From: Apoderus coryli
Taxonomy: Eukaryota; Arthropoda; Insecta; Coleoptera; Attelabidae
Reading direction: 5' to 3'
NCBI GenBank assembly: GCA_911728435.2
Contig: OU452201.1
Span: 19,158,001 to 19,222,000, forward strand
DNA: 64,000 bases
The notes under the pieces are model-generated. The model saw nothing but the letters and a program-made list of their open reading frames with translations. It did no database searches and had not been told where the DNA came from. The number at the start of each line of letters is the position of its first letter. Positions within the stretch are counted from its first letter, which is position 1. The translations under genes and the position numbers were made by a program. Of this stretch, positions 6,832 to 62,010 are shown one piece after another.

Positions 6832-7215
6832 ATAAAACACGTCTACTCCACAAAATGATTTATATCGAAATTTACTAATCACGTATAACTATGGTTCCAA
6901 TTTATTTTATTTAATTTAAATTAACAATTAACCTAATTTCGACAAAATGGTAAGATTTTCATATGATAATGTAGTACAGTATCTATAATTATCTCAAAAT
7001 AAGTAGGTAATTTTTTACAGATATGTATAAATGTTAAACAAAAACAAAAAATAAATTAAACAAACGTAAATACACAACCCTCACATTTACGTATTTAAAC
7101 TAAGTTTCTTTAAGCCACTGATGATGGATATATGCTCCGAAACATGTCTGTCTAATATTACAAGATTTCAATATATTAATCATTTTGTGGAGTAGACGTG
7201 TTATATTCAAATCAA
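6832..7215. mobile_element. Penelope-like repeat remnant with inverted ends
   Basis: The left end ACACGTCTACTCCACAAAATGA (around 6837-6858) is the reverse complement of the right end TCATTTTGTGGAGTAGACGTGT (around 7180-7201). Between them, near the right end, is a hammerhead-like motif. The same TTTTGTGGAG tail follows other hammerhead-like motifs in the window (38036, 56295, 40695, and TTTCGTGGAG at 16121), so this is one repeat family. Hammerheads in Penelope-like elements are established; the family assignment here is inference. Confidence 0.5.
7113..7154 (+). ncRNA. Hammerhead-like ribozyme motif a
   Basis: CTGATGA at 7118-7124, a bulged T, stem II GGA/TCC with a 7-base loop, GAA at 7139-7141, mini stem III ACATGT at 7142-7147 and C17 at 7148. 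Stem I (AGCCA with TGTCT) pairs only two bases. The extra T between CTGATGA and stem II departs from the textbook core but is shared by the whole family. Confidence 0.4.
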
Positions 7216-15804: not shown

Positions 15805-15844
15805 AATCAAACAAGTTTCGATTCGAGCTTCATCATCAGTGGTT
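15805..15844 (-). ncRNA. Hammerhead-like ribozyme motif c (degenerate)
   Basis: On the minus strand: CTGATGA at 15839-15833, GAA at 15819-15817, stem III ACTTGT, H17 = T at 15810, stem I AACCA with TGATT (four of five pairs). Stem II pairs only at its base. It is the partner of motif b and lies upstream of exon C, in the sense orientation for the otopetrin long-isoform transcript. Confidence 0.4.
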
Positions 15845-16031: not shown

Positions 16032-16074
16032 GACCACTGATGATGAAGCTCGAAGCTTCGAAATATGTTTGGTT
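16032..16074 (+). ncRNA. Hammerhead-like ribozyme motif b
   Basis: CTGATGA at 16037-16043, bulged T, stem II GAAGC/GCTTC (five pairs), GAA at 16060-16062, stem III ATATGT, H17 = T at 16069, and stem I GACCA/TGGTT (five pairs including one G-T). All three stems can form, making this one of the better preserved copies of the family. Confidence 0.5.
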
Positions 16075-17199: not shown

Positions 17200-18290
17200 C
17201 CACTTGTCATCACATACATACATGACTTATACAGATATTGACAGGGTGGATCATGGCGTTCTGGTGGATAAGCTTGGAGGATTTGGTTTTGTGGGAAGCC
17301 TAACTGAGTTTTTAATTCACATTTATTAAACATGAATTTTATAATGGATTCAAGTCGTCTTTATGCGGAGCTAGTTCTGGGGTCCCACAGGGTTCTAAGT
17401 TACGGTCTTTGCTCTTTCTATTGTTCATAAATGATTTGGATACAAAACTTTTATATAACTCGTTATTGTTTGCGGGTGACTGTAAAATTTTAGACCTCTA
17501 TGTAACCATCTCACTGAATCTGAATCTGAATGACTGATTTAGGAATTATATTTGATTCGAAATTTACGTTTACTGAGCATATCAATTATAAGAGGCAGGT
17601 AGGACATACGGTTTTCTGGTTAGGAATTGCAGGGGATTTAGAAACACAGATACCCTTAAAACGCTGTACTTTAGCTACGTGCGCTCTAAACTGGAATATG
17701 GGTCACTGATATGGTATCCATATTATGTGACTCATCAAAATACGGTCGAAAAAGTGCAACGTAGATTTTTGAAGTACTTAATGTATAAAGAGGTTGGTCC
17801 TTATCCTCCAAGGGGTACTGACTACCAATTAATGACAGATCGATTTGAGATACCAAGTCTTGAACTTAGAAGGAAAATAAATTCTTTGCGATTTCTTTAC
17901 AGTTTCTCCAATATAGATTGTTCCCACTTGCTTTCAAGAATTAATTTCAACGTTCCAAGGCAGCATATAAGGTCCAGTACAACATTTTATTCTGGTTATG
18001 CTAGGACGAATCTTATGTTGGGATCTCCTATTTCTATTTGTACCAGAAATTACAATCTTATGTGTAAATATTGTGATATTTTTTCGTGTAGTGTTAAAGA
18101 AATTATGGATTGTGCCATGTCTCATGTTACTGATTAGTATTACCATTAAGAGCTAGTTTTCTTTTTATTTTAATTTAAGTTTATTTTTTTGTGGTTTCAC
18201 CGTTTGGAATTAATATTATTTTGTCCTGTAATTGGCTTCGCTGTTGGACAATAAATGATATGATTATTATTATTATTATCTCACCACACT
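17200..18290 (+). mobile_element. Non-LTR retrotransposon fragment, reverse transcriptase C-terminal half
   Basis: Broken frames read YTDIDRVDHGVLVDKLGGFG (about 17228-17290), SSGVPQGSK (about 17372-17398, reverse transcriptase motif), LFINDL and LLFAGDCK, where the catalytic FADD has become FAGD. A 152-codon frame (17679-18137) then gives the post-catalytic part with MRSKLEYGSLIWYPYY and VEKVQRRFLKYL. The 3' end is an (ATT)n tail near 18265. Several frameshifts and the mutated catalytic Asp show it is dead. Jockey-like clade is likely. Parts of the middle (17290-17560) are deleted relative to a full enzyme. Confidence 0.85.
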
Positions 18291-26869: not shown

Positions 26870-27424
26870 ATAAAAAAAAACGTAAGCACCACAGGAACCC
26901 TCAAATCTTGTCTACCCCTTCTAGAAAAAAATAGTAGAAGAGAGAGCCAAACACTATTTGTCATTTAAATAAAAATATATTGTATGTTAGCAAAGTTTAT
27001 TAGTTATTTTAGTAATGTAGAAAAATTTACTGGATAGACATTAAACGAATATCATCACTAAAATAACTAGTAAACTTTGCTAGCATACAATATACTTTTC
27101 TTTAAATGACAAATAGTGTTTGTCTCTCCCAGACAAGGAGCATATGTAAACTATTCAAGAATATTATCTAAATGACATAATGTCTATCCAGTAAATTTTT
27201 CTACATTACTAAAATTACTAATAAACTTTGCTGGCATACAATATATTTTTATTTAAATGACAAAAAGTGTTTGTCTCTTTTAGACAAGAAGCATATGTAA
27301 ACTATTCAAGAATATTATCTAAATGACATAATGTCTATCCAGTAAATTTTTCTAGAAGGGGTAGACAAGGTTTTGGCTGTCCCTGTGGTGCTTACGTTTT
27401 TTATCTATCTGAACCAAGGTTTTT
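26870..27424. repeat. Subterminal inverted repeats flanking tandem copies
   Basis: GGTTCAGATAAAAAAAAACG (26870) and its complement (to 27417) bracket repeats of about 190 bases that share GACAATATTCAAG-type blocks: AAACTATTCAAGAATATTAT occurs at 27148 and 27300, and ACTGGATAGACATTA / TAATGTCTATCCAGT occurs in both orientations at 27030, 27178 and 27331. This gives strong self-complementarity at the 3' end of the element. Confidence 0.65.
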
Positions 27425-37953: not shown

Positions 37954-37997
37954 TGCCACTGATGATGGAATTATAAGATTCCGAAACATATCTGGCA
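37954..37997 (+). ncRNA. Hammerhead-like ribozyme motif d
   Basis: CTGATGA at 37959-37965, bulged T, stem II GGAAT/ATTCC (five pairs, 6-base loop), GAA at 37983-37985, stem III ACATAT with one mismatched pair, C17 at 37992, and stem I TGCCA/TGGCA (five perfect pairs). The Penelope-like tail TTTTGTGGAG follows at about 38036. Confidence 0.5.
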
Positions 37998-40114: not shown

Positions 40115-41540
40115 TAACGTTCACTACTCGTTGAAAAAATTTTCAACCGGAAATAGAAACAAAAGTGTAATCACGAGTATTTACTAAATATTACGAATCA
40201 TATAGTAAAATAACGAATATAACTTTTTCCGAATGTGAAAAACTAAAAACGTGTTGCTCTCATTGCATATACTCCAGATGAGAGTCCCACAGCCAACTAA
40301 GTTGGATAGATCTGGACCGAATTGAAAGAAAGTAGGTCAATGTGATTTGGCTACAACTATACAGGATGCGTTATCCAAACCTCAGTACAAACCCATAGTT
40401 CTTTTACACAATTAATTAATTGTCGTTGGTATCAAAAATTAGTTGGCGATATCTTAATGAAAAAACTTCAAGCTTCATCCTTCATTTTTAAAAATCGGAT
40501 ATATTTATATGGAATTAGTTTTGATGAAAATTGAGAATGATTCTTTAAACAACTAGAATCAATAATACCTGTTCTTTGTAATGTTCAAGTTCATAGATAT
40601 TAATTTAATGAAAGATTGATGGATCTGGCAAGATGGAATGTTGTTGATTCCGATACTTGTTAAAATAGTTTGAATATACCTACATAGAATCTAATTTTGT
40701 GGAGAAAACGTATTTGATTTCACATATATTTCAAAAAATTACCCTTTTTTGTTCCAAAAACAATTTGAGTGTCTTTTGTTTGTTCTTGATAACTGTTTTT
40801 TTAAATAGATTAAAACTATTTAATAACAATGTTGAAAATGAAAAAAAAAGACTTCATGCCTAGGCACAAAAACAAGTACCACAATAATCAGGTCACTGCA
40901 CCATAATATTTCGATATCTTGAGTTATATCTCCACATATACGCACGTTAAAATAATTATATTTTCTACAAAATGTTTATATTTATTCCCATGTTGACCCG
41001 TAGTATCCGATTACATAATAATGTTATAACATAAACTCAAACCGGCCTATTATTCGTAGAAGCCTTGTGCTTTAATACAGGTTTCCACCGTTTTGATCTC
41101 TTGCGTCGCCACTAGCGCTATTGCTCTATTTTAGAGCGTCAAGCAGTCTGTTTCACTTTTCGTGCTTTTAGTTACGGTCATCTACAACGTAGCCGAAATA
41201 GCATCGAGTAGAAATGTTTCAGGAGCGTGGAGTACATGAAGTATAAAATGATTTTCTTCTATTAGAAATATATGATTATTATTTACGATTGCAAAATTGA
41301 TTTTCGGAGGGATAAATATGTTTCATTGAACACACACAGTTCTCTTAAAGATAATGCTTGTAACGTAGATGTTTTTGTACAGACAATGCAAATAATCCAT
41401 CATTTTTTTCTCATGATCAAACGCTCCACACAGACGTCTGTCATATATTCGTGTTTCATGGACATTTATCTATCAAAAGGCATTGATTAGTTCTAGTTAT
41501 CAACGCCAAATACTTTTAAGAACAACTTCGTTGGACTATC
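40115..41540. other. Intron sequence with one degenerate repeat tail
   Basis: Besides the motif at 40620-40662 and its tail (TTTTGTGGAG, about 40695), nothing is recognised. 41060-41260 is less AT-rich but has no open frame of note. Confidence 0.4.
40620..40662 (+). ncRNA. Hammerhead-like motif g (core lost)
   Basis: Stem II GGAAT/ATTCC (40635-40651) and GATACTTGTT remain, but CTGATGA has decayed to CTGGCAAGA. Followed by the family tail at about 40695. Certainly inactive. Confidence 0.35.
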
Positions 41541-41828
41541 CCACTGGTGAGTGGTAGTGTGAAAAAAAAAATCCAACATAACCTTTAAATCTTGTTACAT
41601 TATGTAACAAGCAATTCATTAATAAGCCTCCCGCCAGGGAATTCGGGCGTATCCAGTGTTGGCAATAAAATAGATTTAATGAAGTTGATACTTCTCGACC
41701 GGCCATCGTTTGTGAACTTTGTTTCACCGGGCATATTGCCTGCTCACACTAGATGTCGCCAAAACATCTCTCATGCTAGTATAAGTTCTTCGTAAATGTT
41801 GGAAATTTGGGTCACACTGCCTGCCGAT

Positions 41829-41871
41829 CACCACTGATGAGTTGTGGATCAACAAAACGGCCCGTCTGGTG
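41829..41871 (+). ncRNA. Type I hammerhead ribozyme, mutated core (G12 to A)
   Basis: Stem I CACCA (41829-41833) with TGGTG (41867-41871); CTGATGA 41834-41840; stem II GTTG/CAAC with TGGAT loop; then AAAA where GAAA is required (position 41854, the catalytic G12, is A); stem III ACG/CGT with GCC loop; C17 at 41866. Apart from G12 the structure is perfect. Loss of G12 is expected to abolish or nearly abolish cleavage. Confidence 0.85.
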
Positions 41872-41928
41872 AAAGCATGGTAGTGTGAAACAAATTTCCA
41901 ACATAACTTTAAGTCTTTTATTATGTTG

Positions 41929-42404
41929 TTAGTATTTTAATTTTAATTAACTTTTCCTTTTTCACCAAAATGGTAAGAATTTTTTATATAAGAATGTACA
42001 TTGTATCTGAAGATATTATGTTAAATAGTAATTCAAATCGCAACTACAATATCTCGCATAAGGTTCCTTAATTCACTGATGATAGATGTGTAGTCCGAAA
42101 CATGTCTCTCTTGTGTTAAAAAGAAAAAGGTTTTAACACGTGTGGTCGACACGTTCAGAAGAGGTCGCAGACAGCTATGTGATGACCGGATGCGCGTAAG
42201 GTTTTTATTTTCTGTGGTAACATCTAACGGTTTGTTTTTGAGTTCTATACTACGGTTAAGTCTGAGGGTTTCTTCAGTTCTATTTATATTGTTTTATGCT
42301 TGTGAATCTCGGGTAGTACTTGGATTCTATGATAAAGTTGGATATTTCCAAAATTATTTTGTAATTTTGTTAAATATGTTTCCACATGAAAACTAGAACA
42401 AATA
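41929..42404 (+). mobile_element. Penelope-like repeat inserted into retrozyme unit 2
   Basis: The retrozyme match stops near 41928 and resumes near 42405. The insert contains hammerhead-like motif f and a following GTGTGGTCGACAC, which resembles the family tail. Boundaries are good to about ten bases. Confidence 0.55.
42071..42112 (+). ncRNA. Hammerhead-like ribozyme motif f
   Basis: CTGATGA at 42076-42082, bulged T, partly paired stem II (GA/TC with a mismatched closing pair), GAA at 42097-42099, stem III ACATGT (42100-42105), C17 at 42106. Stem I is poor. Probably inactive. Confidence 0.4.
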
Positions 42405-42622
42405 CATGCCTCCCGCCAGGGAATTCGGGCGCATGTTATGTTGCCAATAGGATATGATGGAGTTGTTGCTTCTCGTCCGGCCATCGTCTGTGAACTGTGT
42501 TTCACCGGGCATATTGCCTGCTCACACTAGATGTCGCCAAAAACATCTTGTTGTCTTTCTTCTCTCGTGCTAGTATAAGCTCTTCGAAAATGTTGGAAAT
42601 TTGAGTCACACTGCCTGCCAAT

Positions 42623-42665
42623 CACCACTGATGAGTTGTGGATCAACGAAACGGCCCGTCTGGTG
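42623..42665 (+). ncRNA. Type I hammerhead ribozyme, intact core
   Basis: Every required element is present: stem I CACCA (42623-42627) with TGGTG (42661-42665); CTGATGA 42628-42634; stem II GTTG (42635-42638) with CAAC (42644-42647), loop TGGAT; GAAA 42648-42651; stem III ACG/CGT with GCC loop (42651-42659); cleavage expected after C at 42660. The GTC cleavage triplet is the preferred one. Together with the copy at 41829 this shows a conserved structure inside a tandem repeat. Confidence 0.88.
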
Positions 42666-43359
42666 AATACGTGGTGGTGTGACCAAATTTCCGACATAAC
42701 TAAAAGTCTTGTTACTTTATGTAACAAGTAATTCACGCCAGGGAATTTGGGCGCATCTAGTGTAGGCAATAGGATATGATGGAGTTGTTGTTTATCGTCC
42801 GACCATCGTTTGTGAACTGTGTTTCACCGGGCATATTGCCTGAGCACACTAGATGTCGCCAAAAACATCTTGTTGAAATACAATTATGTTTTATAACAAA
42901 GCATGCAGTTTTCTAATTCGTTGTAACTGAACAAACATTATTTGTATAATATACTTTGAATATTTCTTATATGGAAATAAACTGAAGAGACGGTAGAGAC
43001 CTTTCCATATCTATACATATGAGAATAAATAATGTCGCAAAAATCTTATAAACCGCATGTGGCACAAACCATAGTTGTTACTGTTATCTCAATACACATT
43101 TTGACGGTATATCTATGTGAATCATGAACTTAAACGTGAAGTTTATACTAATGCATGTAACGTTACAACCTGTTTCCGGCATCTTCTTTATTCAATCTAA
43201 TACAACAGTGGCATCATTGATGCAATTAAGTTTGCGAGGAATTCAGAAACATATATTTTCAAGAATTTTAAATACAATTAAATTATTTTTCTTTATTCCA
43301 CGAAAGCTAAATGCAGCAATGTAATTTAAATTTGCCATTGTAAAAAAATGAATGTTTTA

Positions 43360-52189: not shown

Positions 52190-54730
52190 TTTTAGAAGCT
52201 ATTCACAAACCAAAATAAATTAATTTTTCCATTTGGTGTAATTCGATTTTTTTAATGTTACACTTTTTCAACTCCACTTACTATGAATGCGTCTCAGGGA
52301 TCCTGCAATGAGACAAAAAAAAAATACCAATAAACGCAATAGTAATACACAACAATAGCTTCAGTGTGTTGATAAACAAGAAAAAAGTTAATTCACAACT
52401 AATTATATCATGACTTAGAACGCAAATACTATAAATCTTACAATTTGGAATACAAAAATCTTCAAAGACACATCAGAGAGAATTCTGTATTGTGTTAGGG
52501 TAGATTAAATCGTCACTCCACAAAATATTTTACCATATTTTCCAATGACAGGAATATGTTTTGTTTTGGATATCATAAAAGTTATAAGTTACAGGTTATA
52601 GTTTTCTTGAACATAAAACTAATATTTTATATAGGAAATTGCCAATTAGCACCCGATTTGTTCCTTTATACACCTACAAAAAGTAAGAGAAAAAATTCAA
52701 TGGCTATCAAACAGTTCAAGAGGTCTTTTACGATCCCCTGGCGCAATGTGTTCTAACACCGTATAGTTGATGAGTAATACGGCAATAGAGGCTCTTATCA
52801 GGATTATTTAGGGGTGCATAATATCAAGGTAGCTTTGAAAATAAATGTATATATGGAATTCGGAGATAGAGAAAGACTAGTACTAAAAGTGAATAATACA
52901 ATTATATATCTAAAAATTAGAAATAAGTCCTGGAGATTAAGAGTATTAAGTAGTGAAATGAAAATTATACCCTATGACACTATCCGAAGAAATCAATATT
53001 CAGTAAAACTTTGACATTTATTAAAATGCTGCATTACAAATCTAAAAACATTAATTGTGAAAAGTTATTACAAAAATGGGGAACATTTTATTGTGACAAT
53101 TCTAAGTCATAATTTCAGCGTGCATAATCGACTGTGGCGGCCTGCAATTGATGTTTTCATTAAAAGATGCCCATAGATCGGCATATAACATCGCAATTGA
53201 GTGTCAATGTGGCAGAATGACTAAAAAGCTCCATTCGAAAGCATTTACAAAAATTAAACTTCGCCGCACGATTCAACGAATGTAGGCAGGTACTTACACA
53301 TTCCTTCGTACCCGTTGACGGCAATCCACGCCATGTTGAGAGACATTCTGAGACAACTGAAGAACTCAAAGAAGAAATTGACTTTTTAAATTCGATTTGT
53401 TGCAAGAAACCTTTTACATTAAAATTTGTAACTGTCTCGGTATAAAAGAAGGCGTCATTTGGTGTGGTAATTGGTACTTTGTAAATTCAAATCATTAGTG
53501 TAATGATATACACCAAAACCAAGGAGTACTGATGACGATTTGACCCAAAATATACGAAAATTGTTTCAAAGTTCCTGATTTAGGTACCTATGCAGTAAAG
53601 TTTTAATATAACTAACATATTTCGATACATCTAGTGAAAATGTATACACCCTGTGGAAACTGCATATAAAAACTGGCTTCATAATAGGTATATGTATGTT
53701 TTCAGTACAGTTAGTAGACATATTCGATCGACGCCTCACACAACTGCACAACATCGACGCCGCGTGACGCAAGCGTCAGAACGTTTCTTTGTTCATAACA
53801 GGTTGATGTAGCAGTGGGGGATGAGGGCAGCACTTACCCCTTTCATCCCTTTGGGGGATGTGTTTAATGACATACTTGACTGACGGATAATGAGTTGTTA
53901 TTAAAATTTGAATAAAAAAAAAAATTATGTGACTTTATAGAAAATTGCATTTGTCATTAAAACAGTTACGTACAAAGGGCAAATTCTACATGAGGTTTAG
54001 AACAAAATAAAAAACTACTATTAAACTTGCCTAGTAATTTTACTGTTTTGAATAAATATTGGTCCTTCGTTTTTGCTTTTCCGAAGTATGCCGTATACAT
54101 AATGGTTAAATTTCTAAACAAAACAAATAAGTATAGGTACGTACATTTAAATTTTAAACATATAACAAGATATCAAACGAAGTCAATTGATTTGATAGAG
54201 AAGTCGTATCAGTTCAACAGTTACGATTGTGAAAAATAATGTTTTGGTACCTATATCAATATTCTCATTCGGACGAAATTAAGTATAAGGCGATACTCCG
54301 TTTTGTTCATGTGATCTTCACTTTTAGATGATTCATCCAATTATAATAATCAATATTATTTTTATTTTTTTTGAGACTGTAAAAGTTAAATTTACCTGAG
54401 TAACGTTAAACCACAGTTAAAATAATATACAGTTGGTTCTCAGCGTGTCGGTACGTCTCATCTTCATGTCTATAAGCAATTCGCCGCCCGTATAGTTATA
54501 GTAGGTATAGTATCTTAGAGTATATATAGATATAGAATAACATAGTAGCGGGCCAGAAATGTAGCTGGGAATGCGACGAGTCGATGCCGTTTTCAGCGTC
54601 TAGTAGACCTTCGTGGCTATAGATATTATTCTATGGTTAAACTGTAATTTTTACTTTTCAAAAAGCCTTCATATGTTTACGGATAGTCTGAAACTCTCCA
54701 AATATATATAATTCAATCGTCGATTACTCT
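52190..54730. other. Sequence without genes; repeat fragments
   Basis: Holds an inverted Penelope-like tail (TCACTCCACAAAATATTTTACC, about 52513) and a copy of the 1861-2060 repeat at 54400-54500. The 81-codon minus frame at 53160-53405 is Ser/Cys-rich but unidentified. Confidence 0.4.
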
Positions 54731-56235: not shown

Positions 56236-56305
56236 GAAATAACTGATGATGGCTTGTTGAGCCGAAACTAGTTTCCTTTTTCATAACTAAATTAAAGATT
56301 TTGTG
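56236..56305 (+). ncRNA. Hammerhead-like ribozyme motif e with family tail
   Basis: CTGATGA at 56243-56249, bulged T, stem II GGCT/AGCC (four pairs), GAA at 56264-56266, stem III ACTAGT (56267-56272), H17 = T at 56273. Stem I needs a bulge (GAAA with TTTC). The tail TTTTGTGGAGTTGAC follows at about 56297. Confidence 0.45.
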
Positions 56306-61565: not shown

Positions 61566-61657
61566 TACAGAACAATAATCTCAATCTTTCGTAATAATAA
61601 TTTCCGGCGAACATAATTACGTAAAACAATTATTATAACCCAATGTAATCATCAGCT

Positions 61658-62010
61658 AACATTGGATTAACGTACAAAAGTCATAGATTCATGTTTATCG
61701 TTCGTAACATTGATAACCAGCTGACATCGGTTTAATGTACAAAAATCATAGATTAATGTTCATCGTTCGTAACATTAATAACCAGCTGACATCGGTTTAA
61801 TGTACAAAAATCATAGATTAATGTTCATCGTTCGTAACATTAATAACCAGCTAACATCGGTTTTACGTATTGGAGACATAAACTAATCTTCATCGTTCGT
61901 AACCTTAACAACCTGCTAACATCGGTTTAACGTACAGAGGTTATAAATTAATGTCCATCATTCGTAAGATCAATAACCGGCGAGCATAAATTTATGTTCT
62001 TTATTTATTA
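61658..62010. repeat. Tandem array, 65-bp unit
   Basis: Unit starts at 61658, 61723, 61788, 61853 and 61918 are exactly 65 bases apart, each opening (G/A)ACATCGGTTTAA and containing TTCATCGTTCGTAAC; a sixth, degraded unit begins at 61982. Units 2 and 3 are nearly identical, the outer ones more diverged. Fainter copies may extend from 61600 to 62110. Confidence 0.9.

What the first reader, a model, noticed from the sequence alone, without database searches (positions are those of the whole stretch)
41545..42875. Retrozyme-like tandem array with type I hammerhead ribozymes
A noncoding unit of about 322 bases repeats head to tail, and each complete unit boundary coincides with the predicted cleavage site of a hammerhead whose three stems all form. 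Animal retrozymes (small non-autonomous retroelements that spread as ribozyme-made circular RNAs) have this layout. The unit sequence itself does not match any family I can name, so it may be undescribed. The observed facts are the repeat period and the ribozyme fold; mobility is inference.
Basis: partly seen in the sequence, partly recalled or inferred. Interest (0 to 1): 0.92.

Follow-up and report, generated by a model that had tools for sequence, protein, structure and literature searches.

The report
Weevil retrozyme with two-ended insertion
A leaf-rolling weevil carries over a thousand copies of a tiny selfish RNA element built around a self-cutting ribozyme, and the way its copies end and face each other in the genome suggests that a ring of RNA is copied into both sides of a DNA break from two fixed starting points.

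Summary
The window lies in a weevil genome (COX1 99% identical to Apoderus jekelii). The 322-nt unit and type I hammerhead are real, but the reported array is probably two insertions with other DNA between. The only complete unit has A at hammerhead position G12; the second core is intact. The genome holds 1,337 such cores (up to 3 mismatches; control 0). This is a retrozyme, a known class. What looks new is the insertion anatomy. In 70 clusters, 67 of 90 outer 3' ends fall at two places, A (~80 nt past cleavage) and B (~230 nt); 5' ends scatter. Twenty-one clusters are head to head, one tail to tail. All 11 head-to-head clusters with both ends classifiable pair A with B; outside the sample one exception is B/B. 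Ten of the 11 share 7 nt or more at their flanks, against 8 of 110 in controls. L091 has an exact 16-nt flanking repeat around two opposed arms of nearly identical units. Penelope-like elements here also have sharp 3' ends past a hammerhead and head-to-head pairs. Best reading: a circular RNA is reverse-transcribed from both DNA ends by a Penelope-type enzyme. No RNA was examined.

The parts
41545..41866 (+). Complete 322-nt retrozyme unit; begins and ends at predicted hammerhead cleavage sites
   Evidence: genome search (itself, then 82-87% long copies on other contigs)
41591..41611 (+). Perfect hairpin CTTGTTAC-ATTAT-GTAACAAG just upstream of 3'-end site A
   Evidence: read; hairpin in circular folds; site A defined
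41797..41903 (+). Type I hammerhead with long stem I (arms 41797-41833 and 41867-41903); core 41834-41866, cleavage after GTC at 41866; position G12 is A, so probably weak or dead
   Evidence: pairs counted; effect of a G12 change is general knowledge of the ribozyme, not tested
41867..41926 (+). Start of a following unit; this insertion ends here, inside hairpin A rather than cleanly at site A
41935..42139 (+). Different dispersed repeat lying between the two retrozyme pieces, with a minimal hammerhead-like motif at 42076-42106 and a recurrent 3' end at about 42139
   Evidence: 33 of 42 non-self matches end at query 202-205, my count
42400..42406 (+). Probable target site duplication, left copy (AAATACA)
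   Evidence: found; placed
42407..42875 (+). Second, probably separate retrozyme insertion: 5'-truncated unit 42407-42660 followed by partial unit 42661-42875 ending at site B
42591..42697 (+). Second type I hammerhead (core 42628-42660, cleavage after 42660), core intact
42876..42882 (+). Probable target site duplication, right copy (AAATACA)
   Evidence: found; placed

Best explanation
This is a family of animal non-LTR retrozymes in an Attelabid weevil. Inferred cycle: genomic copies are transcribed; the hammerhead trims transcripts to ~322-336 nt monomers; these are ligated into circles; a reverse transcriptase of Penelope-like type, supplied in trans, opens a target with a stagger of roughly 7-16 nt and uses the broken DNA ends as primers. 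It starts inside the circle at one of two fixed, mostly unpaired stretches, A (~r72-84, directly after a hairpin) or B (~r222-236, after the long arm), and runs round the circle, sometimes several times. One primed end gives a 5'-truncated copy. When both ends are primed, one usually starts at A and the other at B; the two cDNAs join head to head and the insert is flanked by a target duplication. Shown from sequence: the ribozyme fold, copy number, fixed 3' ends, head-to-head structure, A/B pairing, target duplications in part of the loci, near-identical units inside two young inserts, and the same head-to-head layout with sharp 3' ends in Penelope-like elements of the same genome. Inferred: transcription, cleavage, circularisation, and which enzyme does it.
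For: Copy number: 404 exact cores, 1,337 with up to 3 mismatches, controls 0. Ends: of 70 hammerhead-containing clusters (first 60 loci's list, plus L002-L008 and the window, duplicates removed), 67 of 90 outer 3' ends lie in two windows making up 17% of the unit; 5' ends 7 of 50 (14%). Layout: 48 one-sided, 21 head to head, 1 tail to tail. Pairing: 11 of 11 head-to-head clusters with both ends classifiable are A/B (permutation p 0.003); the other 10 have one (9) or two (1) unclassified ends. Flank sharing in those 11: 7 nt or more in 10, against 8 of 110 mismatched flank pairs. L091: TCAAAAATATATATAA at both edges, left arm ends at A, right arm of 5.4 units ends at B; one period apart the right arm has 2 mismatches in 1,481 (both by the junction), the left arm 3 in 247; arms 1 mismatch in 578; median identity between loci 89%. 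L092: AAAAAGTTATAT at both edges, left B, right A, 4 mismatches in 700 positions one period apart, the stretch next to the junction left out. Penelope-like elements: 150 GIY-YIG matches scored of 1,260 candidates. PLE1 has reverse transcriptase (RVT_1, E 2e-15) and GIY-YIG; 36 of 40 non-self copies, 97-100% identical, end within 4 nt, 50-53 nt past the hammerhead cleavage point, the other 4 within 15 nt. PLE2 (GIY-YIG): 45 of 45 non-self matches end within 13 nt, 36 of them 112-116 nt past it. Head-to-head pairs, counted by me: 16 among 46 PLE2 matches, 7 among 41 PLE1 matches. A purified lizard PLE cuts and extends both strands and starts inside the RNA at two sites downstream of its hammerhead (PMC11167929, parts 1-3 of 4 read).
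Against: No RNA evidence. A multimeric linear transcript of a homogeneous array would also give near-identical units, so the circle is not proven. No clear shared sequence links retrozyme ends to PLE ends (only TTGTCAGT near B and near the PLE1 end, perhaps chance). PLE1 and PLE2 use one end site each, not two. Pfam found no reverse transcriptase in the 590-aa PLE2 frame. The A/B rule is not absolute: among loci outside the sample I could read both ends of only two, one A/B (C21:5148979-5149388) and one B/B (C14:19055839-19056724); cannot test it because its query ends at A. 23 of 90 3' ends lie elsewhere. Target duplications of 9 nt or more were found in only 6 of 70 clusters, against about 1.1 expected. 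Covariation did not exceed shuffles (2 pairs with a two-sided change, 332 of 500 shuffles as high), though 93.3% of cells pair against 32-42% when slid. Sampling required an intact core, and the end windows were set after seeing the data. In older loci within-locus identity is little above between-locus.
Confidence: 0.72

Rival explanations
1. Same retrozyme family, but the template is a linear multimeric transcript (read through from an existing array) rather than a circle, with the same two-sided priming.
For: Multi-unit loci exist as possible sources. In vitro a PLE used unprocessed RNA and did not need its hammerhead (PMC11167929).
Against: L091 has five-plus units with no mismatch away from the junction and an opposed arm that matches at 577 of 578; that needs an already homogeneous source array. 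In the sample 39 of 70 clusters span at most 336 nt and none exceeds 669, so such sources look scarce, though the two young loci and others are longer.
Confidence: 0.22
2. A LINE (non-LTR) reverse transcriptase mobilises it, and the head-to-head copies are L1-style twin priming.
For: Runs of 6-9 A follow the 3' end in 7 of 44 A-type ends, which could be a tail or A-rich target. Twin priming makes inversions with target duplications (general knowledge). A frame at 17592-18137 looks LINE-like to my eye, but Pfam found nothing there.
Against: In L1 twin priming, as generally described, the inverted piece starts at varied internal points and does not overlap the direct piece; here its outer end is again often at A or B and the arms overlap (L030, L035, L050, L091). 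37 of 44 A-type ends have no such A run.
Confidence: 0.13
3. It is ordinary satellite DNA that spreads by unequal crossing-over, with a relict hammerhead.
For: Tandem units and local homogeneity.
Against: Copies are dispersed over many contigs, mostly short, with fixed 3' ends, variable 5' ends, target duplications and head-to-head joins.
Confidence: 0.03

Closest known systems
Animal non-LTR retrozymes (Cervera and de la Pena 2020, PMC7229834; parts 1-3 of 6 and discussion read)
   Same: Type I hammerhead with short stem III, 170-400 nt low-GC tandem unit, dispersed, target duplications longer than 4 bp when present, co-existing PLEs; insects named among hosts
   Different: Unit sequence is species-specific there too. 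Fixed A and B 3' ends, head-to-head inserts and A/B pairing are not described in the parts I read; the 2020 review (PMC7761336, passages only) says no conserved motif points to the helper element
Penelope-like elements with minimal hammerheads (PMC11167929, parts 1-3 of 4; PMC3846280, passages only)
   Same: 3' ends at internal start sites downstream of a hammerhead and both strands cut and extended in vitro (first paper); head-to-head inverted copies and 8-10 bp target duplications (second paper)
   Different: PLEs encode RT and GIY-YIG; here no protein, a canonical rather than minimal hammerhead, and two start sites ~150 nt apart instead of adjacent
Plant LTR retrozymes (PMC4918200, search listing with the start of the abstract only)
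   Same: Hammerhead-bounded non-autonomous retroelement with circular RNA
   Different: Type III hammerhead, LTRs, 4-bp target duplications, probable Gypsy helper (as told in PMC7229834)

Membership tests
Animal non-LTR retrozyme | Canonical type I hammerhead in each unit | tested here: met
   Folds and core; RF00163 at E 1.5e-5 to 4.8e-5 in all 12 hammerheads of L091/L092, below the gathering score; no Rfam hammerhead in L080 or in the window
Animal non-LTR retrozyme | Unit of ~170-400 nt, GC under 50%, cut at the ribozyme site | tested here: met
   Four units measured: 322-336 nt, GC 0.42-0.45
Animal non-LTR retrozyme | Tandem copies, dimers to multimers, dispersed | tested here: met
   L091 with ~5.4 + 1.7 units, L092, others by coordinates; 1,337 cores. 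Most sampled copies are shorter: 39 of 70 span at most one unit
Animal non-LTR retrozyme | Target duplications longer than the 4 bp of plant retrozymes | tested here: met
   In part of the loci only: 7-13 nt in 10 of 11 A/B clusters, 16 and 12 nt in L091 and L092; 6 of 70 clusters at 9 nt or more against about 1.1 expected
Animal non-LTR retrozyme | Self-cleavage and circular RNA in vivo | not testable with these tools
   No RNA data or bench work
Penelope-like element | ORF with reverse transcriptase and GIY-YIG nuclease | tested here: not met
   Inserts consist of 322-336 nt units; in the window the only stop-to-stop frame of 90 aa or more inside them is 98 aa on the minus strand (42527-42823), not searched further
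Penelope-like element | Head-to-head copies with fixed 3' ends downstream of a hammerhead | tested here: met
   retrozyme; PLE1, PLE2
Satellite DNA | Long head-to-tail arrays at few places | tested here: not met
   Mostly short dispersed inserts

The most novel reading that the evidence does not exclude
Animal retrozymes carry two different start sites for one helper reverse transcriptase, and a two-sided insertion uses one of each: one enzyme subunit starts at A and serves one DNA end, the other starts at B and serves the other end, possibly on the same RNA ring. In the predicted circular fold both sites are mostly unpaired stretches in the same multi-branch region. The ribozyme unit would then be a compact two-handed cassette for inserting RNA rings.
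Probability: 0.35. Interest if true: 0.78.

Novelty: new variant of a known kind. Interest (0 to 1): 0.62.

Why it matters
The 2020 review states that animal retrozymes show no conserved motif that would reveal their helper element (PMC7761336, passage). Fixed 3' ends, head-to-head joins and target duplications give such a signature and point to Penelope-like enzymes. L091 and L092 are insertions in which near-identical units in two opposed arms record repeated copying of one template, so the question whether the RNA circle is the transposition intermediate becomes testable, with named loci and an enzyme class that has been purified from another animal.

Tried and rejected
Rfam gathering search of the window found nothing; the two E-value matches in 41200-43300 are snoRNA-like and weak. 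Tandem Repeats Finder did not list this locus. Covariation counting gave no support beyond pairing; a two-sided change exists in stem II of the L091/L092 subfamily (TCG/CGA for TTG/CAA) but was not counted formally. Identity could not decide between one and two insertions in the window. Within-locus against between-locus identity did not separate old loci. The 3-mismatch pattern search could not show where mutations fall, since only exact copies were listed. Query L090:300-900 hit another repeat rather than PLE1, so L087 was used. Satellite DNA and LINE twin priming were put aside for the reasons given under the rivals. Searches for prior description; the 2014 PLE-hammerhead paper is not held. 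The weevil identity rests on COX1 similarity only.

On checking, I dropped five 'clear A/B loci' that I had read (one was L091 itself; for the rest the query ends at A), an identity argument for two insertions, and a statement that no A-rich tails occur. I therefore lowered the novel case from 0.40 to 0.35, the best explanation from 0.75 to 0.72, and raised two rivals slightly.

Full report
What was checked. The 322-nt unit is there: cleavage would fall after GTC at 41866, and 41545 is the homologous first base of the preceding unit. Two later copies are again 322 apart. The stretches 41797-41906 and 42591-42700 fold at -55.9 and -52.3 kcal/mol, with 0 of 200 shuffles folding as well. The structure that I drew has an inner stem I of 6 pairs, an extended stem I, stem II GTTG/CAAC with loop TGGAT and a 3-pair stem III; the core assignments come from general knowledge of hammerheads.

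The locus itself. The stretch is better read as two insertions, though this is not certain. Left piece: 41545 to about 41926. Right piece: 42407-42875, flanked by AAATACA on both sides (coordinates read). Some 20 nt that a simple interruption should preserve are absent. Between the pieces lies another dispersed repeat (41935-42139) with a minimal hammerhead-like motif and its own recurrent 3' end. Identity does not help: left and right pieces are 86-90% alike and the two consecutive copies in the right piece 89%. The complete unit has A in place of the catalytic G12; the second core is intact. That this change disables the ribozyme is general knowledge, not a test here.

Organism and copy number. 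The window is part of a 428-Mb genome. Its mitochondrial COX1 is 99% identical to Apoderus jekelii and 94% to another Apoderinae species, so the host is very probably a leaf-rolling weevil of or near Apoderus (Attelabidae). The core pattern occurs 404 times with 0 in the reversed control; a 33-base core with up to 3 mismatches occurs 1,337 times with 0 in the control. RF00163 matches all 12 hammerheads of L091 and L092 just below its gathering score, but not those of L080.

Insertion anatomy. I fetched the first 60 loci in the order listed; that list was cut by the tool and my loci lie on contigs C1 and C5 only. With L002-L008 and the window, mapping to a 335-nt reference unit (r1 = first base after cleavage) gave 73 hammerhead-containing clusters, 70 after removing copies that share flanks. 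Outer 3' ends pile up at A, mostly r72-84, directly after the hairpin CTTGTTAC..GTAACAAG, and at B, mostly r222-236: 44 and 23 of 90, with 23 elsewhere. Outer 5' ends are spread: 2 and 5 of 50 in the same windows. Forty-eight clusters are one-sided (28 A, 8 B, 12 other), 21 head to head, one tail to tail (L067). The windows were chosen after looking, ends are good to several bases, and requiring the core hides copies that lack it. Thirty-nine of 70 clusters span at most 336 nt and none exceeds 669. Runs of 6 or more A stand at 7 of 44 A-type ends.

A and B together. Of the 21 head-to-head clusters, 11 have both ends classifiable, and all 11 are one A and one B; none is A/A, although one-sided copies are mostly A. 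Random pairing of those 22 ends gives this with p about 0.003. Ten of the 11 share 7 nt or more between their two flanks, against 8 of 110 mismatched pairs, so most are single insertion events. Outside the sample, among the loci I could read both ends of two: one A/B (C21:5148979-5149388) and one B/B (C14:19055839-19056724). cannot test the rule, since its query ends at A. The rule is strong in the sample but not absolute.

Two young insertions, chosen for their structure. L091 has TCAAAAATATATATAA at both edges. Its left arm of 583 nt ends at A; its right arm of 1,817 nt, 5.4 units, ends at B. Comparing positions one period (336) apart gives 2 mismatches in 1,481 in the right arm, both next to the head-to-head junction, and 3 in 247 in the left arm; the arms match at 577 of 578. 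L092 has AAAAAGTTATAT at both edges, with B on the left and A on the right; 700 positions one period apart differ at 4, while the stretch next to the junction carries a 1-nt shift and was left out. Both belong to a subfamily with TCG/CGA in stem II, a two-sided change that keeps the pairing, and an AC-GGCC-GT stem III. Repeated near-identical units in two opposed arms are what repeated travel round one RNA circle would leave; a homogeneous linear multimer is the alternative.

The helper. The genome is rich in GIY-YIG elements (150 scored of 1,260 candidates). PLE1 carries both a reverse transcriptase domain (RVT_1, E 2e-15) and GIY-YIG; its copies are 97-100% identical and 36 of 40 non-self matches end within 4 nt, 50-53 nt past the hammerhead-like cleavage point. 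PLE2 has GIY-YIG, but Pfam found no reverse transcriptase in its 590-aa upstream frame; its matches end within 13 nt in 45 of 45 non-self cases, 36 of them 112-116 nt past the cleavage point (cleavage position). Counting by eye, 16 head-to-head pairs occur among 46 PLE2 matches and 7 among 41 PLE1 matches. Published work shows the head-to-head layout with target duplications in rotifer PLEs (PMC3846280, passages) and, for a purified lizard PLE, internal start sites downstream of the hammerhead with extension of both strands (PMC11167929, parts 1-3 of 4). The retrozyme thus carries the insertion signature of a PLE, but no clear shared end sequence ties it to one PLE family.

Fold. Circular folding of four units gives z from -3.2 (window) to -8.4 (L091) against 60 shuffles each. 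In L080, L091 and L092, A and B are mostly unpaired and lie in the same multi-branch region, A after its hairpin and B after the long arm; small local stems are predicted in parts of B in L080.

What is known and what is new. Retrozymes of this general kind are known in animals, insects included (PMC7229834). My searches found no paper in the held library on beetle retrozymes, and I saw none on fixed start sites in retrozymes among the papers and passages that I opened; subscription papers are mostly not held. The element is therefore a new family of a known class; the two fixed starts, the head-to-head layout and the A/B pairing are the new part.

Noticed in passing
window 7118-7142, 15816-15839 (-), 16037-16063, 37959-37986, 42076-42100, 56243-56267: Minimal hammerhead-like cores (CTGATGAT...CGAAA); with the two retrozyme copies and 53529-53559 there are 9 matches against 0.56 expected. 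Probably one or more further families of hammerhead-bearing elements.
   Followed up: partly
L091 (G000:C11:18937380-18939960) and L092 (G000:C7:20964760-20966500): Young multi-unit head-to-head insertions with exact 16- and 12-nt flanking repeats; good test loci.
   Followed up: yes
L023, L033, L038, L045: Retrozyme copies sharing much of the same downstream flank, so apparently carried along inside another repeat.
   Followed up: no
L024 1156-1537: Hammerhead-like stretches spaced 315 nt with a mostly different unit sequence, perhaps a second retrozyme family.
   Followed up: no
L090 from about 573; query: A ~322-nt repeat, 95-98% identical at the 39 other places scored, several of them near contig ends, perhaps subtelomeric.
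   Followed up: no
G000 genome-wide: Many COX1 fragments on nuclear contigs (93 matches in all, the mitochondrial one included), i.e. abundant nuclear copies of mitochondrial DNA.
   Followed up: no
window 27053-27354 and 61646-61978: Tandem repeats of 151 bp (2.0 copies) and 65 bp (5.1 copies), not compared with the retrozyme.
   Followed up: no
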